A stretch of 64,000 bases of DNA from Xenorhabdus cabanillasii (GTDB lineage Bacteria; Pseudomonadota; Gammaproteobacteria; Enterobacterales; Enterobacteriaceae). A program made the position numbers and the translations under genes. The stretch's first letter is position 1. Each line of letters starts with the position of its first letter. This document shows, piece after piece, positions 3,594 through 64,000 of this stretch. The notes beneath the pieces are model-generated. The model was not told where the DNA came from and did no database searches. It saw nothing but the letters and a program-made list of their open reading frames with translations. Where the stretch lies: NCBI RefSeq assembly GCF_003386665.1, contig NZ_QTUB01000001.1, positions 1,054,001-1,118,000 on the forward strand, written 5' to 3'.

Positions 3594-3772
3594 TTTATTA
3601 ACTTACGCAATGCATGAATACACATTCATTAACATTCGCTTAACAGCACTGATTTCTGACTCATCTGTTAAGTTACTGATATCACTTCAACAAATGAGTT
3701 TTAAAATTGGTGCCCGGAGGCGGAATCGAACCACCGACACGGGGATTTTCAATCCCATCGTAAGTTAATAAA
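3594..3772. repeat. 14-bp inverted repeat bracketing the att core
   Basis: TTTATTAACTTACG at 3594-3607 recurs inverted (CGTAAGTTAATAAA) at 3759-3772, with the tRNA-Phe-derived att core next to the right copy. Perfect arms of this length on the flank of an att core look like arm-type sites for the integrase or an excisionase. This is inference from position. Confidence 0.6.
3708..3756 (-). other. ICE attachment site: 3' half of a tRNA-Phe gene
   Basis: Read on the minus strand this 49-bp stretch is the 3' part of tRNA-Phe: anticodon stem-loop with GAA, variable loop, T-arm with GGTTCGATTCC, acceptor strand and CCA. The 5' half (D-arm and start) is absent, because homology stops after GGGATTGAAAATCCCC-type pairing at 3756. 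SPI-7-like ICEs use exactly this end of tRNA-Phe as att. It lies between int (upstream) and parA (downstream), the order found at the joined ends of such an ICE. It is not a functional tRNA gene. Confidence 0.88.
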
Positions 3773-47615: not shown

Positions 47616-48584
47616 ATGGCGCAGAAATCGACACGTTCTAAAATCGAACGGTTCAGAAAAGAATTTATGACCCATGCCCGGCAAGCGGGCGGGAGTTTTG
47701 CGACGGTGGCGGATCGTGAGCGGATTGCCCGGCAGTTTCTTCACTTTCTGAAAGACAAGGGCATTAAGCTCCGGCAGATGGACAACCTCAAAACAAAATA
47801 TATCGAGCACTACATTGCCCAGCGAAAGGCTGACCCTATCAGCCCCCGGACACTGCAAAATGAGATGGCGGCGCTAAGAACCATTTTAACGCAGGCCGGG
47901 AAACACAAGCTGGCAGCAGCCGATAATCCGCGTCTGAGCAACCGGGCACTGGGTATTGCTAATACGGATCGCCGGGGAACAAAAATGGCGTTAACCCCGG
48001 CAGAATTTCAGGCGGCTTTTCAGCAAGTCGAACAAAAAGATCGGGGCGTGGCCGCGGTAATGCAGCTGGCGTATGCATTGGGGCTGCGTACCAAAGAAGC
48101 GGTGGAAGCAGGTAAATCCTTAGCCACCTGGAAAAAAGCGCTGGAAAACGGTCATACCTCCGTGCGAATAGTGTTCGGCACCAAAGGCGGGCGGCCAAGG
48201 CAGACGGTCATACTGGATCGGCAAGCCTTGCAACAGGCTATTGCCTATGCTGAGCGCGAACAGGCAAGGCGCAGGGGCAGATTAATAGATAAACCCACGA
48301 TCCATCAGGCGATAGATCGTTACCGTTACGTGGTCAGACGCGCCGGACTGGTGGGTAAGCTAGCGCCGCACAGCATGCGCTACCATTTTGCGCAGCAATC
48401 CGGGGCATATTACAAAGCACAGGGGTTCAGTGAGCAGGAAGTGCTGGCATTGGTATCAATGGATTTAGGGCATGGTGATGGGCGGGGGCGTTATATCCGG
48501 CAGGTGTATTACCAGAATGTTGAGGGTGAATACACGGAATTATTTACAGGGTCTGGAACATGTGACTCACAATATTTTAATTGA
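47616..48584 (+). CDS. XerDC-type tyrosine recombinase (Integrase_1 group)
   Basis: 322 residues. The N-terminal SAM-like domain (~5-95) and a catalytic domain (~125-310) have Arg in ALGLRTKEAV, a basic KGGRPRQTV, HSMRYHFAQQ (HxxR), LGHGDGRGRY (His) and the Tyr in IRQVYYQN. This fits the group of integrase-domain proteins found inside enterobacterial ICEs and plasmids rather than the att-flanking integrase at 2342. GAGG lies before ATG 47616. It may resolve circles or move the cargo that follows. Confidence 0.88.
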   Translation: MAQKSTRSKIERFRKEFMTHARQAGGSFATVADRERIARQFLHFLKDKGIKLRQMDNLKTKYIEHYIAQRKADPISPRTLQNEMAALRTILTQAGKHKLAAADNPRLSNRALGIANTDRRGTKMALTPAEFQAAFQQVEQKDRGVAAVMQLAYALGLRTKEAVEAGKSLATWKKALENGHTSVRIVFGTKGGRPRQTVILDRQALQQAIAYAEREQARRRGRLIDKPTIHQAIDRYRYVVRRAGLVGKLAPHSMRYHFAQQSGAYYKAQGFSEQEVLALVSMDLGHGDGRGRYIRQVYYQNVEGEYTELFTGSGTCDSQYFN

Positions 48585-49914: not shown

Positions 49915-51249
49915 GATAATGACAGCCACAAAATATAAGGTTAATTAATTTGTTTAAAGCACTCATCCAATATCATGTTTTTCCTGACTTTTCTTTGTGG
50001 TGTCTTGAAGGCATTTTGGGATAAGTATTCTTTCGCTTCTTCCAGACAAAAAATGATTTCTGACCAGGCCTTTTGAAGAACGCTGCTTAATATGGGGCGT
50101 AGCCAAATACAAGTATTATTAGCGGCTTTCAATAAGGATACTGTCGGCAGTAAACGTCTTGCTAGACTACGCCTGAACAGTAATCCTAATAAACTCAGCC
50201 AGATAAGATTTTCAACGATGGATTTGTGGCGGGTGGCATAGCTCCGCCAATTCGTATGTGATTTCAGTTCATTAAACAGTAATTCAACCTGCCAACGACA
50301 ACGGTAAACGACCATAATATCATCAGCGGTAAATTCAGTTGCAGATAAATTCGTCAGCCACAGACAGTAACGACGCTCTTCGGCCACCCAGCGCCGAATA
50401 ATACGAAACTCAAAACCGTCACGGCGGCAGGTCAAATCCAACACTTCCGAACGATTTTTTCGCCGTGTAATGTCTTTTAGCTTGAGAGCTCTCAGTTTAG
50501 GCAGCGATTTTCCCTGCCCATTTTTTGCGTCAATAATGAGTGGATTAAGTGACTTACCTCCCCGAACGATAAACGAACCACCGTACTGCGAGACCTGTTG
50601 GAAATAGGCGAAATCGGCATAACCTGCATCCGCCAAGAGCAACTGGTCTCGCAACATTTCCGGTGCAGGCAGGTAAGCGCGCTCAGAAGCGGTATCAGCG
50701 GTAATGGTCATTTCAGTCGGTACTTGTGTAAACAAATACAGGGTCATATGGCATTCAACAGCGGCCAGAGAAGGGCTGAACCGATAAGCAAATGTGCCTG
50801 ATAATGCAGAATGCACTTTGAATGAACTGCCATCCTGCAAGAGCACATTTTTAATCCGTTGAAATTTTTTGGGCGGCGGTATGACGTGTTTTTCAACAAA
50901 TTGAGCAATGGCAAATCTGACTAATATTTTGACAAAGTCAGTCAGGGCGGATTTTTTAAGATGATTGTAGAAAGGTCTGTATTGGATACGGTGTTTTTTC
51001 TCTGGCATCAACCCATTGATTTGTTGGTGTAAATGAGAAATTGAGGTGATATTTCCCGTACTGATTACTTGTATCAGGGCAAGAATAAACAGGCGGGGTT
51101 CAAGGCATCGGAGCCGTCGTGTAAAGCCACATCGGCGAGCCATTTTTTCTAAAAGAGCATCATTGAAGAATTGCATTAACTGGTGTTTTATAGCGATAAT
51201 TGTCATAGGCTTCATGCGTATTTGGGTGGTTTGTTTGGCAACAATTATC
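49915..51249 (-). mobile_element. IS4-family insertion sequence
   Basis: About 1.33 kb around one transposase. The ends share GATAAT...GCCA (left from 49915, right inverted to 51249) as imperfect terminal repeats. No clear target duplication was found, so the ends are approximate. It separates the HEAT-repeat gene from the biosynthetic genes. Confidence 0.68.
49941..51215 (-). CDS. IS4-family transposase
   Basis: A 424-residue DDE transposase. D in VLLQDGSSF (128), D in LLADAGY (196), and E in YRCRWQVELLFNELK (311), which is the Y-R-E-K signature of IS4. It is full length with no frameshift, so it may be active. Most DDE residues and both ends of the protein look intact. Confidence 0.93.
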   Translation of the reverse strand: MKPMTIIAIKHQLMQFFNDALLEKMARRCGFTRRLRCLEPRLFILALIQVISTGNITSISHLHQQINGLMPEKKHRIQYRPFYNHLKKSALTDFVKILVRFAIAQFVEKHVIPPPKKFQRIKNVLLQDGSSFKVHSALSGTFAYRFSPSLAAVECHMTLYLFTQVPTEMTITADTASERAYLPAPEMLRDQLLLADAGYADFAYFQQVSQYGGSFIVRGGKSLNPLIIDAKNGQGKSLPKLRALKLKDITRRKNRSEVLDLTCRRDGFEFRIIRRWVAEERRYCLWLTNLSATEFTADDIMVVYRCRWQVELLFNELKSHTNWRSYATRHKSIVENLIWLSLLGLLFRRSLARRLLPTVSLLKAANNTCIWLRPILSSVLQKAWSEIIFCLEEAKEYLSQNAFKTPQRKVRKNMILDECFKQIN

Positions 51250-51684: not shown

Positions 51685-51724
51685 CCTTAGCGAAAATAAT
51701 TAATTATTGATAAATGGGCTGCTT

Positions 51725-52663
51725 ATGAGTATTGCGTTTACATCTAGACTAAATATTGAAGTAGTGGTTAACGGTTTACCAACAGCTCCGGCTGATAGTA
51801 AGTTTCGTTTTTTATATCATAATGCACAGAGTAGTAATTGGAATCCAGATCTAGATATAGATTGGATTGAAGATATTGAGTATGGTTCAGCTATATCCAA
51901 CATTAATCATACCGCTTTATTGGAATTCGCAAAATTCCAGAAAAAAGATACCAATATATTATTTTCCCAATTCCAATGGGAGTTACAATTTTGGTTAGTA
52001 TGTCAATTTTTGTATGGAGAACAAGCAGCGCTAGTCGGAGCTTCAGCTCTGGCAATGATTTTATCAGATAGTGACCAAAAATTAGTCTGCTCAACACAAG
52101 TTGCTGATGAAGCAAGACATGTCTTAACTTTTAGCAGATATGTAGACCGCTATATTAAGGAACCATATGGGATGTCAGCTCCACTCAAGAGCTTGCTTAG
52201 CGATGCATTGAATGCGTTTAGCTGGGATATGAAAGTACTTGGAATGCAAATTATCGTTGAAGGATTGGCTGAAGCAACTTTTCGACTTGGTGCTGCGATG
52301 TTCCATGATCCGGTTATCAGGCGCATTGTTGATTTAGTTTCTATAGATGAAAGTCGGCACGTTACATTCGGTATTCTCTTATTGCGGAAACATTATCAAA
52401 ATATTTCTTCTAGTGAAAAACGTATTAGAGAAGAGTTTGTACTTGATTGTGCGGAGGCAATTAAAAAAAGGTTTTTATTAACCGATATTTGGGAACGTTT
52501 AGATATTCCAAAATATCGAGGGATTGACTTTGTGAAGCAATCTTCAGTTATGATTGATTTTCGTCGCACTATATTTAGCAGAATCGGATTAGTATTGAGA
52601 AACTTAGATTTAATGAGTGACAAGATGAGAATGAAGTTACAAAAAATGCAGCTTTTACGGTGA
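51725..52663 (+). CDS. Ferritin-like diiron oxygenase
   Basis: 312 residues, all helical. The metal-ligand pattern of ferritin-like diiron enzymes is clear: Glu in LYGEQAALV, DEARHV, Glu in VEGLAEATF, and DESRHVTFG, i.e. E-ExxH-E-ExxH. AurF-type N-oxygenases have a related pattern, with an extra His in the second half that is absent here. So an oxidation of an amine, C-H or carrier-bound substrate is likely, but the substrate is not known. ATG 51725 is chosen over TTG 51707. It opens the biosynthetic operon. Confidence 0.8.
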   Translation: MSIAFTSRLNIEVVVNGLPTAPADSKFRFLYHNAQSSNWNPDLDIDWIEDIEYGSAISNINHTALLEFAKFQKKDTNILFSQFQWELQFWLVCQFLYGEQAALVGASALAMILSDSDQKLVCSTQVADEARHVLTFSRYVDRYIKEPYGMSAPLKSLLSDALNAFSWDMKVLGMQIIVEGLAEATFRLGAAMFHDPVIRRIVDLVSIDESRHVTFGILLLRKHYQNISSSEKRIREEFVLDCAEAIKKRFLLTDIWERLDIPKYRGIDFVKQSSVMIDFRRTIFSRIGLVLRNLDLMSDKMRMKLQKMQLLR

Positions 52664-52823
52664 TAGGTATTTCATACATGAGCTTAGTTCAGAAAATAAC
52701 AATAATAGCAACATATTATTTTTGAATGAAAAGGGATAACTGGTAGAAATATTATGGAAAAGAGTTCTTGATGTGTACCGTGATTTAGGCATGTTACATA
52801 CAAAATAAAAGGGCTTGTAAACT

Positions 52824-53744
52824 GTGATTAATGTTGAAAAACTAACAAAATCTTTTGCAAAAAAGAAAGTGCTAGATGAAATCTCTTTTAATGTTACAGA
52901 AGGGGAGTTTTTCGCTATCCTCGCTCCTAATGGAGCTGGTAAAAGCACAGTTGTGAAAATACTTACGACCTGTCTTATACCTGATTCGGGAACTGTTAGA
53001 ATTAATCGTTACGATTTGCGAACTCAAGCATCAAAAATTCGTAAATGCATTTCAGTAGTGAGTCAAAATACAGCTCTTGATGAACAGCTTACTGCTGAGG
53101 AGAACTTAACTTTCTTTGGTAGATTATTTGGTATAAAAAGTAAGAATCTCAAACAGATTGTTCATCAACAGTTAGTAAAATTTAACCTTGTTGATGAAGG
53201 TCATAAACGAGTAAGTAATTTTTCAGGTGGAATGAAACGTCGTTTAGATCTTGCTGTCGGACTAATTAATCAGCCTAAAATATTATTCTTAGATGAACCA
53301 ACGACAGGGTTAGATCCAATCAGTCGTCATGATTTATGGGAAACGGTCAAGGCATTAAAATCGAATAATACTACCATCATATTAACTACCCAATACTTGG
53401 AAGAAGCAGATCAATTAGCTGACAATTTAATTTTGATCAATAATGGTAAAATTTGTGCAAGTGGTAATCCAGAAAAATTAAAACATCAGTATGGTAAGTT
53501 TTCCGTGTCTGTTTACTTTTATCGCTATGAGAGTTTACTGGTTGCTCAACAAATTATGACTAAATTTGGTATTTCCTCTATAGATGCTCAACAGTTTTGT
53601 ATTAATATCGTTTTAACTCATGGAGTGGCTTCATTCATTGAGTTAATGAAAAATCTTGATAAAGCAGCTATTGAACTTTCTGATGTGAAATTTTTTCGCC
53701 CTTCTCTTGATGATCTTTTCTGTAAAATAACGAGCAATTATTAA
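52824..53744 (+). CDS. ABC transporter ATPase, DrrA-type
   Basis: A 306-residue ABC ATPase: Walker A APNGAGKSTVV, Q-loop VSQNTALDE, signature FSGGMKRRLDLA, Walker B ILFLDEPTTGLDP and switch His replaced region LTTQYLEE. This matches DrrA/antibiotic-export ATPases. It starts with GTG 52824, after AAAGGG. It is probably the exporter of the cluster product and gives self-resistance, together with the two following permeases. Confidence 0.9.
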   Translation: MINVEKLTKSFAKKKVLDEISFNVTEGEFFAILAPNGAGKSTVVKILTTCLIPDSGTVRINRYDLRTQASKIRKCISVVSQNTALDEQLTAEENLTFFGRLFGIKSKNLKQIVHQQLVKFNLVDEGHKRVSNFSGGMKRRLDLAVGLINQPKILFLDEPTTGLDPISRHDLWETVKALKSNNTTIILTTQYLEEADQLADNLILINNGKICASGNPEKLKHQYGKFSVSVYFYRYESLLVAQQIMTKFGISSIDAQQFCINIVLTHGVASFIELMKNLDKAAIELSDVKFFRPSLDDLFCKITSNY

Positions 53745-53805
53745 GAAGAACTTCGATTAGTAGGTTATTCTATTATCGACAATTTTAAAGAAGTACGAGG
53801 AGCTT

Positions 53806-54600
53806 ATGATGTTATTAAGAAAGGTTCCTAAGATTTTACATCAGTCAGGATTTATTTGTTTAGGTGCATTAACTGGTCGTATATTTAAACACTTACAAAT
53901 AAATATCGGGCAATGGGTTAGCTCAATTATTTTTCCATTAGTCTTTTGGGGGTTATTTTCTTTAATTATGAGTAAGATCATGTTTCATGATGGATTTGAT
54001 TATACTCAAATGTTACCTGCTTCTATTATTATTCAGGCTATCATATTCAGTGCCATGGCAAATGCTTCTTCGATAGCAAAAGATCACCAATCTGGCTTAT
54101 ATCAAAGATTTAAATCGATGCCAGTTAGCCCTATTTCTATAATATTTTCTCGGGTGTTTGGTGATATGATTAAAGGTATTGTTGCTATTATCGTGTTCAC
54201 TTTTATTGGATGGGTAAGTGGTATGCATTTTTACTCAGGGTGGTGTTCAATATTGCTTTTTACTCTGATACCTCTTCTATTCCTGATCACAGTGAATCTT
54301 GGAATGGGAATTATTGGTCACTGGTTAAAGATACAGGAGCATACATCAGCTATCGTCTCTATGATATATGCTCCACTGATGATGATTTCAACTGCATTTG
54401 CCCCTCTTAAGTCTTTTCCTGAGTGGATACAACCGATAGTTTACTACTCTCCAGTAACATCTGTTTTATCTGTAATGCGGTCAGCATTAAATGGGGAATT
54501 CAGTGCAGAGTTATATCTAATACCATTGATAAATTTATTAGTGTTAGTTATTATTTTTTCTGCTTTTCAATATCATATATTGAGAAGGAATTTACAATGA
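53806..54600 (+). CDS. ABC-2 type permease (DrrB-like) 1
   Basis: 264 residues with six membrane helices and the ABC-2 signature near the C-terminus (FAPLKSFPEWIQPIVYYSPV). GAGGAG precedes ATG 53806. It overlaps the next permease by 4 bp. It is one half of the exporter. Confidence 0.9.
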   Translation: MMLLRKVPKILHQSGFICLGALTGRIFKHLQINIGQWVSSIIFPLVFWGLFSLIMSKIMFHDGFDYTQMLPASIIIQAIIFSAMANASSIAKDHQSGLYQRFKSMPVSPISIIFSRVFGDMIKGIVAIIVFTFIGWVSGMHFYSGWCSILLFTLIPLLFLITVNLGMGIIGHWLKIQEHTSAIVSMIYAPLMMISTAFAPLKSFPEWIQPIVYYSPVTSVLSVMRSALNGEFSAELYLIPLINLLVLVIIFSAFQYHILRRNLQ

Positions 54601-55376
54601 ATATATTATCTCTGTTATTCAATAACACATTAACTCAGGTATTACGTTATATACTGCGATTCCTACGCATACCACCTTTGTTTGTTTCCTCTATTATTTT
54701 CCCAGGTTTACTACTTGTATTTTTCTATATGATGTTTAGCGGAGCGGTTTTGCGATATGAACAACAAGAATATATCCAAAGGTTGTTACCTGGAATTTTG
54801 GTTTCCAGTGCTCTGCTTGGTTCAATACCTACTGCGGTGAGTTTACAAATTGAAATTAATACAGTGATGTTTCAGCGGATTAGGTCCATGCCTATTTTAT
54901 GGATGAGTATACCCCTCGGGATTGTTTTTTACGAAGCTATTAGGGTGCTTATTTCATCAGTCTTTTTGATTCTTATAGGTTTAACATTAGGCTTCTCATT
55001 TAAGATAGCACCTTTGCCGCTCACTAGTTTTATGATTACGCTGATATTTGTTCCATTAACGTTAAGTTGGTTCAGTTTAATCATTGCAATGATTAATAAT
55101 AGCACAGAGCTTCTTACTATCTTATTGAATATACTTTTTTTGTTGGTGATATTTGGATCTCAAAGTATGGCACCATTAAACGCATTTCCAGAATGGATAC
55201 AACCACTGATATTCCATAATCCAGTATCTGTGTTTTCTGAAACAATGCGGCTTGCTGCATTAGGAAAAGAATATTCAGAGTCATTACTCACTGTAATTAT
55301 TTATTCAGTCATACTTTTGAGCATTGTAGTACCAGTTACTTGTTATGTTTTTAGTCGCAAGTGCAAAGCTGCCTAG
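54597..55376 (+). CDS. ABC-2 type permease (DrrB-like) 2
   Basis: 259 residues with six helices and MAPLNAFPEWIQPLIFHNPV, the same signature as permease 1. The start is the ATG at 54597 in an ATGA overlap; the longer open frame from 54423 lies inside permease 1. The two permeases form the heterodimeric membrane part, unlike the classic single DrrB. Confidence 0.88.
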   Translation: MNILSLLFNNTLTQVLRYILRFLRIPPLFVSSIIFPGLLLVFFYMMFSGAVLRYEQQEYIQRLLPGILVSSALLGSIPTAVSLQIEINTVMFQRIRSMPILWMSIPLGIVFYEAIRVLISSVFLILIGLTLGFSFKIAPLPLTSFMITLIFVPLTLSWFSLIIAMINNSTELLTILLNILFLLVIFGSQSMAPLNAFPEWIQPLIFHNPVSVFSETMRLAALGKEYSESLLTVIIYSVILLSIVVPVTCYVFSRKCKAA

Positions 55377-55419
55377 TTCATTTGGAATTTCAACAAATCA
55401 TATTAAGTGGTAGAAAGTG

Positions 55420-56400
55420 ATGAATAAATCGACACCTTGGTTTTTAGATGCTCAACTAGCAAGAGTTGCAAATATGATGCCGATCACAGATCTTGCTGAT
55501 TATCAAAAAGCAAGAGCTATGATTGAAAAATTTAAACATTTCATCGGTAAAGCTGAAAAAGATGAGCGCGTTGTTATTTCAGAATATTTTATTGATAGGT
55601 TAAAAGAGGATTCCGCGTTACGTGTTAGAGTCTATTCACCAGCCGGAAAACCAAATGATAAAAAGCCATGTTTGGTCTATATGCATGGTGGAGGATTTGT
55701 ACTTGGTGATCTGGAAGTGGAACATATGCGATGCCAGCGGATGTCGATAGAATGTGAATGCGTCGTCGTTTCAGTAGACTTTAGATTACCCCCTGAATAT
55801 CCTTTTCCTCATGGGCTAAACGATTGTTACCTTGCGTTGACATGGGTAGCTAATTCTGCGCACAAAATTAATATCGACTCAACTCGTATCGCTGTAGGTG
55901 GATGTAGCACTGGTGCAACCTTAGCAGCGTCACTCGCTTTAATGGCACGGGATAATGATGGCCCCAACCTAATATTTCAATTCCTGCTTTATCCGGCCTT
56001 AGATGACCGTCTAAACACAGAATCTATGTCTGAATTTGAGAATATACCTGGAGGTGATCGAATTGCAGCAGAGAGAATGTGGAAATACTACCTAACTGAT
56101 GTAGAAGGTGAGCCCTCTTACTTGGCCGTACCTAATCGAGCCGATGATTTAACTCGTCTGCCTCATACTTATTTAATGACGAATGATGTAGAAGTCTATC
56201 GTGATGAAGTCTTTTCCTATGCAAGCCGCTTACTAAAAGCTGGAGTACCTACTGAATTTCATTGTTATTCAGGTACATTTCATGCGTTTGAATATATGGT
56301 GCGTACCGCAGATATTTCAATAAAAGCTTTGGAACAGCAAATGTATGTTTTACGTCGAGCATTGCATTCACCACCTATGGCTAACATTAGAGAAAAGTAG
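55420..56400 (+). CDS. Alpha/beta hydrolase, HSL (hormone-sensitive lipase) type
   Basis: 326 residues. Oxyanion motif MHGGGFVLGD (~88-97), nucleophile elbow GGCSTGATLAA (Ser in CSTG, ~165; the common form is GDSAGG), and a C-terminal His in SGTFHAFEY. It resembles the acetylhydrolase group. In the cluster it could release or deacylate the product, or act as an acyltransferase. The elbow differs from the common form, so it may have shifted activity. Coupled closely to the monooxygenase gene. Confidence 0.82.
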   Translation: MNKSTPWFLDAQLARVANMMPITDLADYQKARAMIEKFKHFIGKAEKDERVVISEYFIDRLKEDSALRVRVYSPAGKPNDKKPCLVYMHGGGFVLGDLEVEHMRCQRMSIECECVVVSVDFRLPPEYPFPHGLNDCYLALTWVANSAHKINIDSTRIAVGGCSTGATLAASLALMARDNDGPNLIFQFLLYPALDDRLNTESMSEFENIPGGDRIAAERMWKYYLTDVEGEPSYLAVPNRADDLTRLPHTYLMTNDVEVYRDEVFSYASRLLKAGVPTEFHCYSGTFHAFEYMVRTADISIKALEQQMYVLRRALHSPPMANIREK

Positions 56401-56401
56401 C

Positions 56402-57634
56402 ATGAATACTGTCGATATATCTTCTCTACCATTATCTGTAATTGTTATTGGTGCAGGCCCTGTGGGGTTGGTATCAGCATTGGCACTTAAATCCTATGGT
56501 TTGAGTGTTCTGGTAATTGAAGCTGATGCTGAAGAGAAAATAAGACCAGGAAGTAGGGCTTTATTTTTACACCACGATTCGCTGAAATTGTTGGAACGTT
56601 TTTACCAACCATTGGCACAACGTTTTTTTGAAAAAGGATTTGTATGGCAAGAACGGCAAACTTATTTTTCAGGAAAGCTTGTGTATTCACAAAAGATTTC
56701 AACTGAAAGATTAGGGACAGAAATTTTTCCTCCGTTTGTTAGTTTGCGCCAAAGCGAAACAGAAAAGTTGCTGCGTGAAGCGTGTAATGAAACTGGAATT
56801 AATATTCTTTGGGAAGAGCCTGTACAGTCAGTCAATGCTGATAAACAAGGTGTTCGAATCGTTACTAATAAAGCAACATATTATTCAAAATATGCTCTTG
56901 GTGCTGATGGTGCATCTTCAGAGACACGTAATTCATTAAATATTAAACTGGTTGGGGATTCATCACCAGGAACTCATATCGTTATTGATTTTATTTCGGA
57001 AAATTCTCCCTATCAGCAAAAACGAACATTTCACTATAAACACCCTCAATTAGAGGGGAGAAATGTATTAATTATCCCTTTTGCTGGAGGTTGGCAAGTA
57101 GATTTGCAATGTAAACCAGATGACGATGTTGATTGGATGATAAGCCAGAAGGGGCTAAGATCTTGGTTATCAAATTTGATTGAAGAACGTTTTTTATCGA
57201 ATATAGATTGGGTATCCACTTATCGCTTTAATCAAGTCGTCGCTGAATGTTTTGTTGATGAATATAGACGTGTTTTGTTGGTTGGTGAGGCAGCGCACTT
57301 ATTTCCACCTTATGGTGCCAGAGGGCTTAATAGCGGTATCGCAGATGCGGATGTGGCTGCTCAAGCTATTACATTAGCCACAGTCTCAACTTCTGAATCT
57401 CGGCGTAAAGGGTGTATTAACGATTTTGATCTATCTCGCAGGACGGCAGCTATAGAAAATTGTCGCGCAGCAAAACAAGCATTGAATGCAATTCGAACCC
57501 CTCGGTTAATTGATAAAGCAAAACTTATTGCTGCCTTACTCCTGAGTAATGTTTATAAACCATCAGCTCGTTGGCTTGATGCTGCACCATACGGACCCGC
57601 ACTCACTCAAAAAAGATTTCCAACTCGTTATTGA
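56402..57634 (+). CDS. FAD-dependent monooxygenase, PHBH type
   Basis: 410 residues. The FAD-binding GxGxxG is VIGAGPVGLVSALALKSYG near the N-terminus, and the second FAD motif is LLVGEAAHLFPPYGARGLNS with GIADADVAAQ. This is the aromatic-hydroxylase group (UbiH/PHBH). ATG 56402 is chosen as it starts right before the Rossmann fold. It is a tailoring oxygenase, probably hydroxylating an aromatic or carrier-bound precursor. It overlaps the next gene. Confidence 0.87.
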   Translation: MNTVDISSLPLSVIVIGAGPVGLVSALALKSYGLSVLVIEADAEEKIRPGSRALFLHHDSLKLLERFYQPLAQRFFEKGFVWQERQTYFSGKLVYSQKISTERLGTEIFPPFVSLRQSETEKLLREACNETGINILWEEPVQSVNADKQGVRIVTNKATYYSKYALGADGASSETRNSLNIKLVGDSSPGTHIVIDFISENSPYQQKRTFHYKHPQLEGRNVLIIPFAGGWQVDLQCKPDDDVDWMISQKGLRSWLSNLIEERFLSNIDWVSTYRFNQVVAECFVDEYRRVLLVGEAAHLFPPYGARGLNSGIADADVAAQAITLATVSTSESRRKGCINDFDLSRRTAAIENCRAAKQALNAIRTPRLIDKAKLIAALLLSNVYKPSARWLDAAPYGPALTQKRFPTRY

Positions 57635-57651
57635 TGAAAGGTCAAATAAAC

Positions 57652-58344
57652 ATGAGTAAATATCGAGAGGCAGTTGTAGAAGAGTTATTAGAACGTCATG
57701 AAAGTGTGCTGCAAAACATCACCTTTTCATTGAACGGAATGACTTGGGATTTAATGCCTGGTGTGTATGCGCCACACTTAACGAGAGGTGCATTACTTTA
57801 TCCGAATTGGCTGCAATTCAATCAAGAAACAAGATTTTGTGAGATAGGTTGTGGAATGGGATATCTTTCCGTTTTAGTAGCACTTACTGGTTGTAAGCAT
57901 GTCCTAGCTACAGATATATCATCCGTTGCAGTTGAAAACACATTAAGCAATGTTAAGAGACACGGTGTTCAGGAACAAGTTGAGGTGATACAAAGCAATC
58001 TATTTAATGAAATTGAAACTGGTAGACAATTTGACATCATTTTTTGGAATTCCAGTTTTGTAGATGGGTTACCACAGCGACCAGAATCAGAATTAAATTC
58101 GGCTATTTACGATTATGGATATGAAACGCACAAACGTTTTTTAACTGAAGCGTTTAATTATTTATCTCCTATGGGAAAGGTTTTATTAGGATTTACTGAT
58201 CTAGGGGACTTCAATAAATTATGTCGTGAAGCAGAACGTTTGAATCGGCATATTTCTATTTTACGTGCAGCTTATGTAGATACTAAACTAGGTGGCTTAA
58301 CTTATCAATTACTTGAAATAACAAAAAAGTTGAAAGCAAAATAA
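57652..58344 (+). CDS. SAM-dependent class I methyltransferase
   Basis: 230 residues. The SAM motif I is CEIGCGMGYLSVLVALTG, then VLATDIS (motif II) and DIIFWNSSFV (motif IV-like). AAAGGT lies 9 bp before ATG 57652; ATG 57634 is a possible alternative. The acceptor (O, N or C) cannot be told. One of two methyltransferases in the cluster. Confidence 0.83.
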   Translation: MSKYREAVVEELLERHESVLQNITFSLNGMTWDLMPGVYAPHLTRGALLYPNWLQFNQETRFCEIGCGMGYLSVLVALTGCKHVLATDISSVAVENTLSNVKRHGVQEQVEVIQSNLFNEIETGRQFDIIFWNSSFVDGLPQRPESELNSAIYDYGYETHKRFLTEAFNYLSPMGKVLLGFTDLGDFNKLCREAERLNRHISILRAAYVDTKLGGLTYQLLEITKKLKAK

Positions 58345-58502
58345 TAAATAAACAAGATCCCACCTATTTTTCAGTTAAATAGAATTTCATGTTTATAAGG
58401 AATTACTCTTAATTATTATTTTAATCAATTGTTTTTCTGAATCACAAGTCGTAAGCATTGTTTAAATAATTAACTTAATATTAGCTTAAAATGGAGATTT
58501 AT
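58345..58502. promoter_or_regulatory. Intergenic gap in the biosynthetic cluster
   Basis: About 150 bp of very AT-rich DNA between the methyltransferase and carrier genes, the longest gap after the exporter genes. It may hold a second promoter. No hairpin with a T-run is obvious. Confidence 0.3.
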
Positions 58503-58778
58503 ATGGAAATCAATAGCATTGAACTTACAGAATCAATCAAAACATTGATTATTGAACTTAGCCCAATCGAAATTCATGATTTAAAGGGAGATGAACATTT
58601 AGTTGATCAACTAGGATACCAATCTTTATCCATGGCAGAGCTAGCGTTTGCATTAGAAGACAAGTTTAAATTAGCCCCCATTGATAGAGCGACTGCTCAC
58701 AGAATTCAAACAGTAGACAACATCATTGCCTACATTGAAGAGCAAATAAAACGAGAAGGGAATATTTATTATGATTGA
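58503..58778 (+). CDS. Free-standing acyl/peptidyl carrier protein
   Basis: 91 residues with the carrier fold: the phosphopantetheine Ser stands in QLGYQSLSMAELAFALEDKF (usual form is DSL; here QSL). GGAG is 7 bp before ATG 58503. The stop overlaps the O-methyltransferase start by 8 bp, which suggests the two work together on a carrier-bound substrate. A separate carrier in an NRPS cluster often holds a modified amino or aryl acid. Confidence 0.83.
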   Translation: MEINSIELTESIKTLIIELSPIEIHDLKGDEHLVDQLGYQSLSMAELAFALEDKFKLAPIDRATAHRIQTVDNIIAYIEEQIKREGNIYYD

Positions 58779-59811
58779 TTTAACAGAAAAAAAAGCTATC
58801 AGTAAAATAGAAGCAATTAGTCGGTTTACTGAGCTTGCTGATTACATTATTCCTTTTACTATCAGGTCTATTTCTGAACTAAAAGTTGCTGACTGTCTTG
58901 TAGATGGAGCTAAATCAGTCGCAGAGATTGCTAAAGAAGTTGGTGCTAACGAATTTGCTCTTTATAGAGCAATGCTGGCATTAGCAAGCAAAGGAATTTT
59001 TGCAGAGACAGATGAACCTGGGATATTTGAACAAACGGCGATGTCTGAATTATTAAGCACCCGCTCTACGCTTTCGCTTCGAGATGGATACCGTATGCTT
59101 CATGCAGACATTAAAGCTTGGTCTCGTTTTGATTATAGTTTGCGTACAGGAAAAGCTTGCTTCGATATAGTCCACGATCAAGATTACTGGGACTTTTGTG
59201 CTTCTCATAAAGATTATAGTCTGATGTTTGACAACGCTATGGCGACGTTTACTCCACTGGAATATCGTGCAATTTTAGCCGCATATGATTTCTCTGGTAT
59301 TGAAACTATTGTGGATATTGGTGGTGGAAATGGTAGATTATTATCTCTCCTCCTTAAATCTTTACCGCATGTAAAGGGTAAACTGTTTGATCAACCCCAT
59401 GTTGTTGATAAAGCTCATTTGACTCTGGAAAATGCAGGTGTCCTTTCTCGATGCGAAATCCACGGCGGCAGCTTTTTTGATACAGTACCAGAAGATGGCG
59501 ACCTCTATATTATTAAACGCGTGATTTACGATTGGGACGACGAACACGCTGGCAAAATCCTCTCAAATGTTGCTCAGGCTATGAACCCTAGCGGCAAAGT
59601 TGTTGTTATTGATCCTGTACTTATCCCTGGTAATAGTGCCGATCTAGGTACCACTTATTCTCGTATCTACGATTTATTAATGATGGCTATGGTTTCAGGC
59701 CATGCTCGTAGCGAAGAGCAGTCTGCAATGTTGTTTGATAAGGCTGGTCTGAAATTGACACGTGTAATCCCCACAATGTTATTCCCCATCGTGGAGGGGA
59801 TTAAGAAGTAA
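58771..59811 (+). CDS. O-methyltransferase (Methyltransf_2 family)
   Basis: 346 residues. N-terminal winged-helix dimerisation part (~10-105: VAEIAKEVGANEFALYRAML) and C-terminal SAM domain (~170-340): VDIGGGNGRLLSLLL, FDQPHV, and IKRVIYDWDDEHAGKIL where the catalytic His/Asp normally lie. This family methylates phenolic or hydroxamic OH groups, which fits the FAD hydroxylase next door. Confidence 0.88.
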   Translation: MIDLTEKKAISKIEAISRFTELADYIIPFTIRSISELKVADCLVDGAKSVAEIAKEVGANEFALYRAMLALASKGIFAETDEPGIFEQTAMSELLSTRSTLSLRDGYRMLHADIKAWSRFDYSLRTGKACFDIVHDQDYWDFCASHKDYSLMFDNAMATFTPLEYRAILAAYDFSGIETIVDIGGGNGRLLSLLLKSLPHVKGKLFDQPHVVDKAHLTLENAGVLSRCEIHGGSFFDTVPEDGDLYIIKRVIYDWDDEHAGKILSNVAQAMNPSGKVVVIDPVLIPGNSADLGTTYSRIYDLLMMAMVSGHARSEEQSAMLFDKAGLKLTRVIPTMLFPIVEGIKK

Positions 59812-59877
59812 AAATTTCCTTTTAATTACTTAACAATGCAATTACACCATTAGAAACTATTACTTGGTGGTTAAATA

Positions 59878-62800
59878 ATGAACTATCTTGATGAAGTACA
59901 TTTTAAGGATCAGGCAACGAGTCCATCAGGAGAAACAGCTATATTGCACAAATATAGTCAAGAATGGATATTAATGCGTAGAGCAATGAGTGATTTTGCT
60001 TTACGACTGCGACGTCAATTTTATTCACTTGAAGAACTAATAAGTGATCTAGCGAATATCTTAGGGATTGATACTGAAGATATAGATCCAAGTGATAGTC
60101 TTATTGAATGGGGGCTTGATTCAATCAGAACAATGGAATTGGCCAATATTTGGCAAACTAAAGGAATTACTGTCAAGTTTGCTGAACTTATGTCAAAACC
60201 ATATCTTGATGCTTGGCTTTCTATACTGAATAACGCTCCAATCGCCCAGTTACCGAGTGAATTGCCCTCTTCAGGAACAGGGCCTTTTGCTTTGACACCT
60301 GTGCAACATGCATATTGGATTGGTCGAGAAAACCATTTCGCCTTGGGGGGTGTGAGCGCACATTTTTATGTGGAATTTCATATTCGTGATTTAGATATTA
60401 CTAGGCTGAATATCGCCATTGCACATATGGTTGAACGGCATCCGATGCTATGTTGTCGTTTCTTAGAAGATGGCACACAACAGGTGATACAAAACTGGCA
60501 ATGGAAAGGAATCTCTGTATGCGATTATGGTGATGTGTCAAGTCAGTCTGAAGAGGGAAAATATTTCCTTCAACAGCTCAGGAAAAAATGGTCACATCGT
60601 AAGCTTGCAATAGAAGAAGGGATTGTATTCGATTTTAATATTAGTCGTTTCTCTGAAGAAATGATTATCCATTTTGAAGTGGATTTATTAGTTGCGGATG
60701 TGCTGAGTATTAGAATAATGCTTAAGGATCTTGCATTGGCTTATCAAAAACAAACCACGTTACCTGCCATTCGAGCTACTTTCTCAGATTATCTATTGTG
60801 GAAACAAAAGTATGATCGACAGGAATATGAACAAGCCAGATTATACTGGTTGGATAGAATAGAACGAATACCATCACAGATTGTTTTACCACTACAGACC
60901 ACTCCTGAATCAATTACCACTGTTCAATTTAAACGTCGTTCTCGTTGGTTATCTCATTATCATGTGCTTCAACTGAAACAAATGAGTATGCAGAATGGTA
61001 TTACATTACCAATTTTGTTCACGACAATTTATGGTCTTGTACTATCCCGATGGTCCAACATGACACATTTTTTTATTAATGTGCCAATTTTTGATCGTCA
61101 AAATATTCTTCCAGATATCAACCAAATGGTTGCAGATTTTACAAATATTTTAGTACTGGAACTAGACCTCAGAAATGTACAGACATTGCAACAAGCATGT
61201 GCAAAACAGCAGCGTATTTTTCAGGAAATTATGGGATATCAAAGTTTTTCTGGTGTAGAGATCTTGAGAGAGATTGTTAAACGGAATGGTGGGGAGTTTA
61301 TCACATCTGCTGTATTCACAAGTGGAATAGGCATGGGTGAATTAATTGATGAAGACGTCAAAGTAGTGTTAGGCAATCCTGATTATATGATTTCTCAAAC
61401 TCCGCAAGTTTTGTTAGATCACCAGGTTGTAGAATATAACGGAGGGTTACTAATTAATTGGGACAGTGTCGATGAGCTATTTCCGGCAGGATTATTAGAC
61501 GACATGTTCCACGCATTTGAACAATTGTTATTGCATGCATGCGAACAGTCTCATTGGGTGGAGCCCTTACCGGATATTTTACCTTCGCATCAACAGGCTG
61601 TTCGCCGGCAAGTAAATCATACCCAATACACCTTCCCGACCGCTTGTTTACATCATGGTTTTCTTGAACATGCCCGTATCCAACCTGAAGCCGTTGCACT
61701 GCAATGGGGGGATTCTGGCCGCTGGAGTTATGGTGAGTTACTCACACATGTTCAAGGTATCGCGGAAGCATTACAAGTCAATGGTGTATCAAGCGGTGCA
61801 TGTGTCGCAGTGTCATTACCCAAAAGCCCGGCACAAGTGGCCGCTGTTTTAGCTGTCTTGTCACTGGGGGCTGCCTATGTTCCGGTGGGAGTGGAACAGC
61901 CAACAGAACGCAGAAACAGAATCTATCGCAATGCGGGGTTGAGCGCAATACTCACGGAGCAGAAGCAAGTGGCGAGTCTCCAGAGAGTGAATGATTGTCC
62001 CGTTATCGCTGTGATGGATGAAGCAGGCACTTGTCTGCGTAGTGAGGTGCTCTTACCGAAGGTGACAGTAAATGAGCTGGCATTGGCCTATGTTATCTAT
62101 ACCTCAGGGTCAACGGGGGAGCCGAAAGGTGTTGAGATGACACATCAGGCAGCGTGGAATACGGTGGTGGGTATTAATGCCCGTTTTTCAGTGAATGCAT
62201 CAGATAAAATCCTGGCTCTTTCGGCGTTGGACTTTGATTTATCTGTTTATGATATTTTCGGACTGTTAAGTGTCGGGGGCTCTCTCGTGTTACCGGCAGA
62301 ATCGGAGCGCAGAGATCCCTATCGCTGGCAGGCAGACATTGCACGTTATGGGATCACCATCTGGAACAGCGTGCCGGCGTTACTGGAAATGTTACTCACC
62401 GTGGAAGAGGGCTCGCTGGCTACACTACGTTTAGCTCTGCTCTCCGGTGACTGGATTGGTCTGGATTTAGCCGAGCGGCTGAGATACCGCAGCCCCTCAA
62501 GTTGTTTTATTGCGTTGGGGGGTGCGACTGAAGCGGCTATATGGTCGAATTGGTACGAAGTCAAAGAGGCATCACCCGACTGGCTTAAAGTGCCTTATGG
62601 ATACCCTCTGAGTAACCAACAATACCGAGTTGTGGATAGCCAGGGGCGGGATTGTCCAGATTGGGTGAGTGGTGAATTATGGATTGGCGGTACAGGTATT
62701 GGTATAGGTTATCGTGGTGATGCGGCCCGGACATCTGAGCAATTTATCATATCCAATGGGGTTCGGTGGTATCGTACCGGGGACTTAGGACGCTATTGGC

Positions 62801-64000
62801 CGGATGGTTGTATAGAGTTTTTAGGACGTAATGATTTCCAGATAAAAATCCGTGGACATCGTCTGGAGCTGGGGGAAATAGAATCTGCATTATGCCGGCA
62901 TCCATGGGTCCGGGAAGCAGTTGTTTTAGTCATTGGTGAACGAAATAAACGTCTGGCGGCGGTGCTGTCATGTCAAGACGGTATTGAACACTCAGTATTA
63001 CAGGATTGCATTGGTGAATATCTCGTTAAGCATTTGGCGAGTTATGCATTACCGAGTCAATACATCGTGGTGGATAGTTTCCCGTTGACAAGTAATGGCA
63101 AGATTGATCGCAATGCCTTGATGTTGTTATGCCAACAACAGGTTGTCGGGCAGGCAATACCACCGGAAGGGGAGCTGGAACAACGAATTGCTTTGATATG
63201 GCAGGAGTTATTGGGGATTGAAGCGGTTAATCGGGATGACCACTTTATGAGCTTAGGGGGGAATAGCTTATTAGCCACCCAGTTTATTGAGATATTGAAG
63301 CGAAATGGTATTACAGGTGGAACGTTAACAAATTTTTTACGTCACCCAATACTCAAAGATTTTACTAAGACATTAAGATTATTAGATTCAACGAAAAATG
63401 CCTCCCGTAGTTATGTGATAGACCACGATTCAGTGAATCGTTTTCTGGACTTTGAAACCACTCCGGTACAAAGAGCATATTGGCTTGGGCGTTTGCCGCA
63501 TTTTGACTTGGGGGGGATTTGTTGTCACTACTATATGGAATTCATTGCTGACGATATTGATATTCATAAATTGCAATCAACACTTAATCAGTTGATCAAA
63601 CGCCATGATGCCTTACGAACAATATTTCCATCAGAAAGTCATCAACGTATCTTAGCAGAAGTTCCTGAATATATCGTAAAAGAAACCTATTTTAATGAAT
63701 CATTAGAATCTCAGATAGAGAATGTCAGGAATTTTTTATCTCATTATGTTTTTGATCCGACTCATTGGCCGCTATTTAATGTTCAGGTTGTAAGAACGCA
63801 ACATCAAACACGAGTGATGCTCGGTATTGATAATATCATTATGGACGCATTGAGTATCAATGTAATGTTGAACGAATGGAGTAAGTTATACGCAAGTCAG
63901 CCTATTGATAAATCACCAGCGATTAATTTTCGAGATGTTTTGCGTAATCGGAAAGAAGATCATCAACAAATACAGGCTGCATGGCAATATTGGTCGGAGC
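59878..64000 (+). CDS. NRPS ArCP-Cy-A(Cys)-PCP-Cy..., 3' end outside window
   Basis: 1374 codons are visible. Residues ~50-115 are a carrier of aryl type (EWGLDSIRTMEL, Ser82). Cy1 begins with LTPVQHAYWIGR (~139-150) and has the heterocyclisation motif DLLVADVLS (D269-S277). The A domain (~600-1080) has YTSGSTGEPKG (~741) and a ten-residue code that I read as D-L-Y-N-L-S-L-I-W-K, the known L-cysteine code of pyochelin/yersiniabactin synthetases. PCP Ser is in GGNSLL (Ser1130). Cy2 starts with TPVQRAYWLGR and has DNIIMDALS. The order follows yersiniabactin HMWP2. It should make a thiazoline from an aryl- or acyl-carrier starter. ATG 59878 has GGTGG ahead. Confidence 0.92.
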   Translation, partial: MNYLDEVHFKDQATSPSGETAILHKYSQEWILMRRAMSDFALRLRRQFYSLEELISDLANILGIDTEDIDPSDSLIEWGLDSIRTMELANIWQTKGITVKFAELMSKPYLDAWLSILNNAPIAQLPSELPSSGTGPFALTPVQHAYWIGRENHFALGGVSAHFYVEFHIRDLDITRLNIAIAHMVERHPMLCCRFLEDGTQQVIQNWQWKGISVCDYGDVSSQSEEGKYFLQQLRKKWSHRKLAIEEGIVFDFNISRFSEEMIIHFEVDLLVADVLSIRIMLKDLALAYQKQTTLPAIRATFSDYLLWKQKYDRQEYEQARLYWLDRIERIPSQIVLPLQTTPESITTVQFKRRSRWLSHYHVLQLKQMSMQNGITLPILFTTIYGLVLSRWSNMTHFFINVPIFDRQNILPDINQMVADFTNILVLELDLRNVQTLQQACAKQQRIFQEIMGYQSFSGVEILREIVKRNGGEFITSAVFTSGIGMGELIDEDVKVVLGNPDYMISQTPQVLLDHQVVEYNGGLLINWDSVDELFPAGLLDDMFHAFEQLLLHACEQSHWVEPLPDILPSHQQAVRRQVNHTQYTFPTACLHHGFLEHARIQPEAVALQWGDSGRWSYGELLTHVQGIAEALQVNGVSSGACVAVSLPKSPAQVAAVLAVLSLGAAYVPVGVEQPTERRNRIYRNAGLSAILTEQKQVASLQRVNDCPVIAVMDEAGTCLRSEVLLPKVTVNELALAYVIYTSGSTGEPKGVEMTHQAAWNTVVGINARFSVNASDKILALSALDFDLSVYDIFGLLSVGGSLVLPAESERRDPYRWQADIARYGITIWNSVPALLEMLLTVEEGSLATLRLALLSGDWIGLDLAERLRYRSPSSCFIALGGATEAAIWSNWYEVKEASPDWLKVPYGYPLSNQQYRVVDSQGRDCPDWVSGELWIGGTGIGIGYRGDAARTSEQFIISNGVRWYRTGDLGRYWPDGCIEFLGRNDFQIKIRGHRLELGEIESALCRHPWVREAVVLVIGERNKRLAAVLSCQDGIEHSVLQDCIGEYLVKHLASYALPSQYIVVDSFPLTSNGKIDRNALMLLCQQQVVGQAIPPEGELEQRIALIWQELLGIEAVNRDDHFMSLGGNSLLATQFIEILKRNGITGGTLTNFLRHPILKDFTKTLRLLDSTKNASRSYVIDHDSVNRFLDFETTPVQRAYWLGRLPHFDLGGICCHYYMEFIADDIDIHKLQSTLNQLIKRHDALRTIFPSESHQRILAEVPEYIVKETYFNESLESQIENVRNFLSHYVFDPTHWPLFNVQVVRTQHQTRVMLGIDNIIMDALSINVMLNEWSKLYASQPIDKSPAINFRDVLRNRKEDHQQIQAAWQYWSE

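What the first reader, a model, noticed from the sequence alone, without database searches (positions are those of the whole stretch)
51725..64000. Possibly undescribed thiazoline natural-product cluster carried with the ICE
An ArCP-Cy-A-PCP-Cy NRPS with a cysteine code is joined to a diiron oxygenase, PHBH-like hydroxylase, two methyltransferases, a free carrier protein, an HSL-like hydrolase and a three-part exporter. The HMWP2-like order suggests an aryl- or acyl-thiazoline. The tailoring set and antibiotic-type exporter, without siderophore receptor or reductase genes in view, do not match yersiniabactin, piscibactin, pyochelin or dithiolopyrrolone clusters I know. The starter unit may be built on the free carrier.
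Basis: partly seen in the sequence, partly recalled or inferred. Interest (0 to 1): 0.8.

Follow-up and report, generated by a model that had tools for sequence, protein, structure and literature searches.

The report
Mobile thiazoline cluster, thioesterase site lost
A mobile DNA element in an insect-symbiont-type bacterium carries an unusual, probably undescribed variant of a metal-binding natural-product pathway, in which the part that normally releases the product has lost its active-site residue and other genes may do that job.

Summary
Reading past 64000 completes the cluster. NRPS1 is ArCP-Cy-A-PCP-Cy-A-PCP; NRPS2 is Cy-A-MT-PCP plus a TE-like tail. Then follow a saccharopine-dehydrogenase-like protein, thiazolinyl imide reductase, type II TE, stand-alone C domain, two aryl ligases and a fused PabA-PabB aminodeoxychorismate synthase. 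All three A domains carry the cysteine code. This is the coelibactin/sorangibactin/mupirochelin kind of assembly line, not yersiniabactin, but without salicylate synthase or P450; PabAB suggests an aminobenzoate-type starter. New observation: here and in seven actinobacterial relatives the terminal TE lacks its Ser/Cys nucleophile. These eight loci carry an AurF-like diiron gene (8 of 8), a stand-alone C domain (7), an O-methyltransferase (7) and a free carrier (6). Twenty comparison loci with Cys/Ser TEs carry no linked AurF-like gene. I propose that release or capping has moved from the TE to this gene set. The association may reflect one evolutionary event. The product is unknown, and the salicylate-type ligase gene is frame-shifted, so the cluster may not work as it stands.

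The parts
3707..3756 (.). left attachment repeat (50 bp, 3' end of tRNA-Phe); partner at L015:6486-6535, giving an 86,829-bp element
51707..52663 (+). AurF-like nonheme diiron protein (ferritin-like); DExxH-type ligand motifs invariant or nearly so in a 17-row alignment
52824..53744 (+). DrrA-type ABC exporter ATPase (TIGR01188 292.9 bits, just below its cut-off of 312.45)
53806..54600 (+). ABC-2 type permease 1
54423..55376 (+). ABC-2 type permease 2 (ORF start overlaps permease 1, so the true start is probably later)
55417..56400 (+). HSL-like alpha/beta hydrolase (HGGG, GCSTG motifs)
56345..57634 (+). FAD-dependent aromatic hydroxylase-like protein (best solved relative PnpA 6ain, 70.8 bits)
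57631..58344 (+). MTS-type methyltransferase; among 28 compared contexts a relative (40%) only in the PabAB-containing cluster of G633
58491..58778 (+). free carrier protein (LGYQS)
58771..59811 (+). O-methyltransferase (Methyltransf_2 with dimerisation domain)
59878..64000 (+). NRPS1, runs on to window-equivalent 66552: ArCP-Cy-A(Cys)-PCP-Cy-A(Cys)-PCP, 2224 aa; A1 and A2 blocks 636 aa identical (3 differences in 1,907 nt). Downstream (window-equivalent = L014 + 64000): NRPS2 66549-71690 Cy-A(Cys)-MT-PCP-TE-like tail; saccharopine-DH-like 71687-72772; thiazolinyl imide reductase 72775-73794; type II TE 73805-74605; stand-alone C 74602-75891; benzoate-CoA-ligase-like 75904-77391; fused PabA-PabB 77408-79561; 205-aa protein of unknown family 79558-80175; VOC protein 80417-80794; salicylate-type AMP ligase, frame-shifted, 80842-82185; IS3-like transposase ORFs from 82737

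Best explanation
The locus is a coelibactin/sorangibactin-type aryl-oligothiazoline assembly line on an ICE, re-equipped at both ends. Shown by sequence: an ArCP followed by three cysteine modules with Cy domains, a methyltransferase set into the third A domain as in PchF, and the in-trans reductase and type II TE of pyochelin-like pathways. Inferred start: chorismate goes to aminodeoxychorismate (PabAB) and an aminobenzoate, is activated by the benzoate-CoA-ligase-like enzyme (or formerly by the salicylate-type ligase), possibly hydroxylated by the FAD enzyme, and loaded on the ArCP. Inferred end: the terminal TE has no nucleophile, so it does not release the chain; the gene set that accompanies such TEs (AurF-like oxygenase, stand-alone C domain, free carrier, O-methyltransferase) releases or caps it, most simply by the stand-alone C domain condensing it with a carrier-bound or free acceptor. 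The product, exported by the DrrA-type transporter, would be a metal-chelating aryl-(thiazoline/thiazolidine)3 compound.
For: Domains and motifs. The order NRPS1-NRPS2-saccharopine-DH-reductase-TEII is kept in five of six followed AurF-linked relatives, and the gene set matches sorangibactin's SrbC, D, E and I (PMC10127202, parts 1-3 of 5 read). PabAB: TIGR01823 451.0 bits (cut-off 442.55), PIKGT motif, near full-length match to 8hx6 aminodeoxychorismate synthase. PabAB and lig495 are also adjacent in a coelibactin-like cluster of G633 (40% and 37%). TE: nucleophile absent in 8 of 8 AurF-linked loci, present (19 Cys, 1 Ser) in 20 of 20 others. Accompanying genes in the 8: AurF 8, stand-alone C 7, OMT 7, free carrier 6; in the 20: AurF 0, OMT 2, free carrier 0, and no C domain outside an NRPS except in L158, where it belongs to a second, multimodular NRPS. 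AurF is absent (16) or not linked (3) in the 19 genomes behind the 20 rows. The AF2 model of the tail (pLDDT 79.3, pTM 0.72) has alternating strands and helices, as an alpha/beta hydrolase would (my reading of the strand order).
Against: The TE association may be one event: the NRPS2 tree needs one change, support 82/87, with this locus on a very long branch. The tail of this locus matches the seven other nucleophile-less tails only weakly (P 0.006) and the Cys-TE profile not at all (P 0.46); the AF2 model was fed an alignment holding TEs, and no fold search could be run. The stand-alone C of this locus does not group with the others with support (44), and it is missing from the G199 locus. 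AurF occurs in relatives without linked PabAB, so it cannot simply make a nitrobenzoate starter. No dedicated aminodeoxychorismate lyase was recognised. The salicylate-type ligase is frame-shifted.
Confidence: 0.55

Rival explanations
1. Oxidative release: the AurF-like diiron enzyme, not the C domain, ends the chain by oxidising the last thiazoline or thiazolidine, followed by cleavage, decarboxylation or amide formation. The nucleophile-less TE is then only a scaffold.
For: AurF-like gene in 8 of 8 such loci, a slightly better tracker than the C domain (7 of 8), though six of the eight were found by way of AurF. Precedents from passages read: LynB7, a diiron enzyme, oxidatively decarboxylates thiazoline-4-carboxylate (PMC10127204); proposed cleavage off-loading of photoxenobactins (PMC9396620).
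Against: LynB7 has a different ligand set, like PtmU3 (passages). It needs a free carboxylate and so a prior hydrolysis, which this TE should not give. It does not explain the stand-alone C, carrier and OMT.
Confidence: 0.25
2. Aryl N-oxygenation: the AurF-like protein converts a PABA-derived arylamine to a nitro (or hydroxylamine) group, giving a nitroaryl-oligothiazoline; the stand-alone C domain acylates or caps elsewhere, and the tail defect is incidental because the type II TE or hydrolase releases the chain.
For: AurF family (PF11583) and fused aminodeoxychorismate synthase in one cluster. A type II TE with GHSMG and an HSL-like hydrolase are present.
Against: Fused PabAB is in only 2 of 28 compared contexts, this locus and one without AurF; the other 7 AurF loci lack it in the stretches compared, although G202 has a fused PabAB on another contig. 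So AurF and PabAB do not travel together.
Confidence: 0.2
3. A decaying siderophore locus: a coelibactin-like salicylate pathway that has lost its aryl ligase, TE and receptor and makes nothing now.
For: Salicylate-type ligase frame-shifted, with its C-terminal part in another frame. No ORF of 600 aa or more in the element is left unassigned for a TonB receptor.
Against: The other cluster ORFs are open, including a 2224- and a 1713-aa NRPS, with the motifs checked intact. The TE defect is shared with relatives, so it is not fresh decay. The genome holds other intact aryl ligases that could act in trans.
Confidence: 0.2

Closest known systems
Sorangibactin cluster (Sorangiineae MSr11367; PMC10127202, parts 1-3 of 5 read)
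   Same: Seven-domain first NRPS, second NRPS of five domains ending PCP-TE, saccharopine-DH-like SrbE, Irp3-like SrbI, VOC protein SrbJ, alpha/beta hydrolase SrbA, two methyltransferases, aryl ligase
   Different: No salicylate synthase, no P450; PabAB, AurF-like, FAD enzyme, free carrier, stand-alone C added; TE lacks the essential Cys
Coelibactin and mupirochelin clusters (coelibactin through PMC10127202; mupirochelin PMC10080011, passages)
   Same: Same NRPS logic; saccharopine DH, VOC and thiazolinyl reductase in mch
   Different: mch has isochorismate synthase and lyase, P450 and TonB receptors; none of these recognised here
Equibactin on ICESe2 of Streptococcus equi (PMC3672683, abstract and passages)
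   Same: A thiazoline NRPS pathway carried by an ICE
   Different: Different element and host; salicylate-fed, with importer genes; no AurF, PabAB or stand-alone C mentioned in the passages seen
Photoxenobactin/piscibactin (pxb) (PMC9396620, passages)
   Same: Cys-derived thiazolines in entomopathogenic bacteria; unusual release
   Different: Hybrid PKS-NRPS, salicylate starter; no PKS domain found in this cluster. A salicylate synthase and ligase close to large NRPS genes, resembling pxb, lie elsewhere in this genome

Membership tests
Coelibactin/sorangibactin-type cluster | ArCP-Cy-A-PCP-Cy-A-PCP plus Cy-A-MT-PCP assembly line | tested here: met
   (first 2040 of 2224 aa of NRPS1)
Coelibactin/sorangibactin-type cluster | terminal TE with Cys nucleophile, essential in sorangibactin | tested here: not met
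   no Ser/Cys at the nucleophile column
Coelibactin/sorangibactin-type cluster | saccharopine-DH-like protein and thiazolinyl imide reductase | tested here: met
Coelibactin/sorangibactin-type cluster | P450 (SrbH/CYP105N1) | tested here: not met
   no P450 among the 20 cluster ORFs scanned
Coelibactin/sorangibactin-type cluster | salicylate synthase in the cluster | tested here: not met
   TIGR03494: the cluster hit is PabAB at 136.3 bits, below the cut-off of 325.15; the one over the cut-off (469.4) is at 3.03 Mb
Coelibactin/sorangibactin-type cluster | product structure | not testable with these tools
   needs isolation
Yersiniabactin/piscibactin | HMWP1-like PKS module | tested here: not met
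   no KS/AT family among hits of NRPS1 (first 2040 of 2224 aa) or NRPS2
AurF N-oxygenase | PF11583 over its cut-off with conserved diiron ligand motifs | tested here: met
AurF N-oxygenase | arylamine N-oxygenation | not testable with these tools
   biochemistry needed
Aminodeoxychorismate synthase (fused PabA-PabB) | full-length fusion, PIKGT motif, over curated cut-off | tested here: met
   (meaning of PIKGT recalled)
tRNA-Phe ICE | att repeats, integrase, conjugation genes | tested here: met
tRNA-Phe ICE | relaxase and actual transfer | not tested
   relaxase gene not looked for; transfer needs experiment

The most novel reading that the evidence does not exclude
A conserved, undescribed termination route for polythiazoline NRPSs: the terminal TE has become a catalytically dead platform, and a four-gene set (AurF-like diiron oxygenase, stand-alone C domain, free carrier, O-methyltransferase) finishes the chain with a second, separately carried building block. 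It is shared by actinobacteria and a gammaproteobacterial ICE, where it is combined with an aminobenzoate starter.
Probability: 0.3. Interest if true: 0.75.

Novelty: new variant of a known kind. Interest (0 to 1): 0.6.

Why it matters
Coelibactin-like clusters occur in myxobacteria, Streptomyces and Pseudomonas, yet coelibactin itself had not been isolated as of PMC10127202, and the unusual release step of its relative sorangibactin is not fully understood there. This locus marks a sub-family whose release domain lacks its nucleophile and names the genes that may replace it, so the question becomes testable by single-gene removals. It also puts such a pathway on a mobile element in a bacterium of the nematode-symbiont type, with a different, probably aminobenzoate-type starter.

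Tried and rejected
Salicylate siderophore of the yersiniabactin type: rejected (no PKS found, no salicylate synthase in the element). AurF as simply the maker of 4-nitrobenzoate from the PabAB product: weakened, because linked AurF and PabAB do not co-occur in the relatives compared. IS insertion as the cause of the short salicylate-type ligase: rejected; its C-terminal part follows directly in another frame, before the IS. The 205-aa protein after PabAB: no Pfam, NCBIfam or PDB match; one other homologue in a word-limited protein search (82%, Photorhabdus asymbiotica); in 246 family genomes only itself, and in the 12 genomes of the genus of G250 (chosen as the nearest other genus by trmB DNA) one 48-residue fragment with stops; the AF2 model is unusable (pLDDT 36.9). 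The protein after PabAB in G633 is an unrelated LuxR-type regulator. Stand-alone C tree: 4 of 12 own-genome C-domain rows (L002, L007, L008, L011) were wrongly extracted and are junk; the place of this locus's C domain is unsupported. One search also listed 28-33% matches of the Micromonospora stand-alone C query in 10 of the 20 Cys/Ser rows; one search shows that 9 of the 10 lie inside NRPS1 or NRPS2 and the tenth (L158) in another NRPS region. All-against-all gene clustering mixed in antisense ORFs and was used only for leads. Of the 80 AurF loci, seven were chosen by eye for strong NRPS1 matches or for an aryl ligase beside AurF; others with weaker NRPS matches (L027, L029, L030, L038 and more) were not followed. 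Viral-contig scans: reductase none; AurF many distant hits, not pursued. AurF on plasmids: 7 records, at most 33% identical. The Photorhabdus and metagenome relatives (P0072, P0042) were not available with their surroundings.
Full report
Observation. The window is C1:1054001-1118000 of a 4.34-Mb one-contig genome. I read on into L013-L015. From 51707 to window-equivalent about 82400 there is one block, all on the plus strand. In order: AurF-like diiron protein, DrrA-type ATPase and two ABC-2 permeases, HSL-like hydrolase, FAD hydroxylase-like protein, MTS methyltransferase, free carrier, O-methyltransferase, NRPS1, NRPS2, saccharopine-DH-like protein, thiazolinyl imide reductase, type II TE, stand-alone C domain, benzoate-CoA-ligase-like protein, fused PabA-PabB, a 205-aa protein of no known family, a VOC protein and a salicylate-type AMP ligase. 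In 2-kb bins its G+C content is 0.34-0.48, against 0.41-0.57 over the first 46 kb of the window.

Mobile element. A tRNA-Phe gene lies at L015:6487-6562. Its 3' end is repeated perfectly over 50 bp at window 3707-3756, which bounds an element of 86,829 bp. Among ten ORFs scanned are ParA, DnaB, a topoisomerase, TraD-, TraC- and TraG-type proteins, a TrbI-like protein below its cut-off and, beside the tRNA, a tyrosine integrase. I did not look for a relaxase. A second, XerC-like recombinase (43.1 bits, far below that model's cut-off) lies at 47616-48584, just before the cluster.

Assembly line. NRPS1 (2224 aa) is ArCP-Cy-A-PCP-Cy-A-PCP. NRPS2 (1713 aa) is Cy-A-MT-PCP plus a 225-aa tail, with a TubC-type docking segment in front. 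All three A domains show D-L-Y, N, L, S, L, I, W at the code positions (positions and meaning recalled; residues), the cysteine code. All three Cy domains keep DxxxxD, the carriers keep their serines, and the stand-alone C keeps HHxxxD. A1 and A2 are identical over 636 aa and differ at 3 of 1,907 nt. In nine other NRPS1 proteins measured, the A cores are 51-89% identical, so the identity here points to recent conversion or duplication.

Starter. PabAB passes the aminodeoxychorismate-synthase models TIGR01823 (451.0 against 442.55) and TIGR00553 (330.9 against 328.4), and matches 8hx6 over residues 1-701 of 717. The 495-aa ligase is closest to benzoate- and anthranilate-CoA ligases among solved structures. 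A cluster in genome G633 has the same NRPS pair with PabAB (40%), this ligase (37%), the MTS methyltransferase (40%), a salicylate-type ligase (38%) and the exporter ATPase (39%). So the starter genes recur as a set, though seen only once more. The aminobenzoate identity is inference. The second ligase resembles DhbE and salicylate ligases. Its reading frame breaks near its 3' end, with the rest following in another frame. A DHB-AMP ligase over the model's cut-off (838.7 bits) and a salicylate-synthase-linked ligase (592.1) lie elsewhere in the genome.

Relatives. I chose seven by eye (L017, L018, L019, L021, L023, L026, L034). Six of their genomes were held, and all six carry the reductase on the same contig as AurF (contig lengths). 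In five of them the order NRPS1-NRPS2-saccharopine DH-reductase-TEII is kept; in the sixth (Bailinhaonella) the saccharopine DH was not found. A separate search with the saccharopine-DH-like protein hit 29 of 394 genomes of the same class, at 30 places. Seven places are other kinds of NRPS without the MT-PCP-TE end (L157, L163, L165, L167, L168, L169, L171) and in one (L173) the NRPS is cut by the end of the stretch fetched; these eight were dropped from the TE count, leaving G201, G461 and 20 others.

The TE-like tail. In one search the nucleophile column reads Cys in 19 and Ser in 1 of the 20 loci without linked AurF. It is neither in 8 of 8 loci with linked AurF: this one, six reached through AurF (one of them, G201, also by the second search), and G461, found only by the second search. 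Counted from the carrier motif GGxS, the AurF-linked proteins have 236-334 aa left (this one 260) and the others 360-397. The G-x-H motif near the C-terminus, seen in all 10 Cys/Ser rows aligned (10 of the 20), is lost in 7 of 8; L100 keeps GDH. With one threshold, the 8 hold AurF 8, stand-alone C 7, OMT 7, free carrier 6; the 20 hold AurF 0, OMT 2, free carrier 0. C-domain matches in the 20 lie inside the NRPSs, except in L158, where they belong to another NRPS. In whole genomes, AurF is missing from 16 of the 19 genomes behind the 20 rows, is present but unlinked in G711 and G665, and matches weakly (23%) and unlinked in G649. The tree of NRPS2 without its tail makes the AurF group one side of one branch (82/87), with this locus on a long branch. 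So this is at best one evolutionary association, not 28 independent ones. The tail of this locus fits the other seven weakly (P 0.006, including a shared stretch ending in CLG) and ten Cys/Ser TEs not at all (P 0.46). A profile of all 18 tails matches TE domains of known structure. An AF2 model (pLDDT 79.3, pTM 0.72) shows strand-helix alternation as in an alpha/beta hydrolase, with the lost nucleophile between a strand and a helix. That model used an alignment containing TEs, and no fold search could be run.

Function. The scaffold (aryl plus three cysteine heterocycles, at least one reduced and one methylated) follows from established logic of pyochelin, yersiniabactin and sorangibactin enzymes. 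How the chain leaves is inferred. The commitment here is that the stand-alone C domain, with the free carrier and OMT supplying a second unit and AurF oxidising it or the chain, replaces the TE. Oxidative release by AurF and simple decay are the main rivals. Other AurF-linked actinobacterial loci carry thiolase-, SDR-, FabA-, CoA-transferase- and luciferase-like genes nearby, so their chains start or end differently.

Known kinds. The gene set is closest to sorangibactin (PMC10127202, parts 1-3 of 5 read) and mupirochelin (PMC10080011, passages). An ICE-borne thiazoline pathway has a precedent in equibactin (PMC3672683, abstract and passages). Uniformide A and transvalencin A are related zinc-binding products (PMC11364655 and PMC10080011, passages). 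It fails the Cys-TE, P450 and salicylate-synthase tests of the sorangibactin kind, so I file it as a variant. In searches of the held open-access library I saw no listed title or abstract on AurF-linked coelibactin-like clusters; several listings were capped at 20 and most papers of subscription journals are not held.

Distribution. The AurF-like gene was in 1 of 197 relatives' genomes (itself). The closest other reductase is 92% identical on a 9.5-kb metagenome contig, and the 205-aa protein has an 82% match in Photorhabdus asymbiotica, so at least parts of the cluster occur elsewhere. No near-identical DNA to L014:8000-18400 was found among 72,556 plasmids.

Noticed in passing
window 61390-63296 and window-equivalent 64525-66431: The two A-domain blocks of NRPS1 are 636 aa identical with 3 nucleotide differences in 1,907, although the flanking Cy domains differ; the A cores are 87-89% identical in two relatives and 51-61% in the other seven measured.
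   Followed up: partly
window 47616-48584: A second tyrosine recombinase (XerC-like, weak) sits upstream of the low-G+C cluster and a transposase-like ORF (49941-51215, minus), hinting that the cluster may be a nested insert in the ICE.
   Followed up: no
window 15744-18233: A single 829-aa protein matching a type II restriction-modification fusion (PADLOC MTase_II 1353 bits) inside the ICE.
   Followed up: no
window 37212-39053: VgrG/phage-baseplate-hub-like protein (Phage_GPD, Gp5 trimer) encoded on the minus strand inside the ICE between conjugation genes.
   Followed up: no
L014:15558-16175 (window-equivalent 79558-80175): 205-aa protein directly after PabAB with no Pfam, NCBIfam or PDB match and one other homologue found (82%, Photorhabdus asymbiotica); could be the missing aminodeoxychorismate-processing enzyme.
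   Followed up: partly
L217-L296: AurF-like ferritin-fold proteins (29-33% identical) are encoded on many IMG/VR viral contigs: 144 stretches confirmed in the scan, 80 kept.
   Followed up: no
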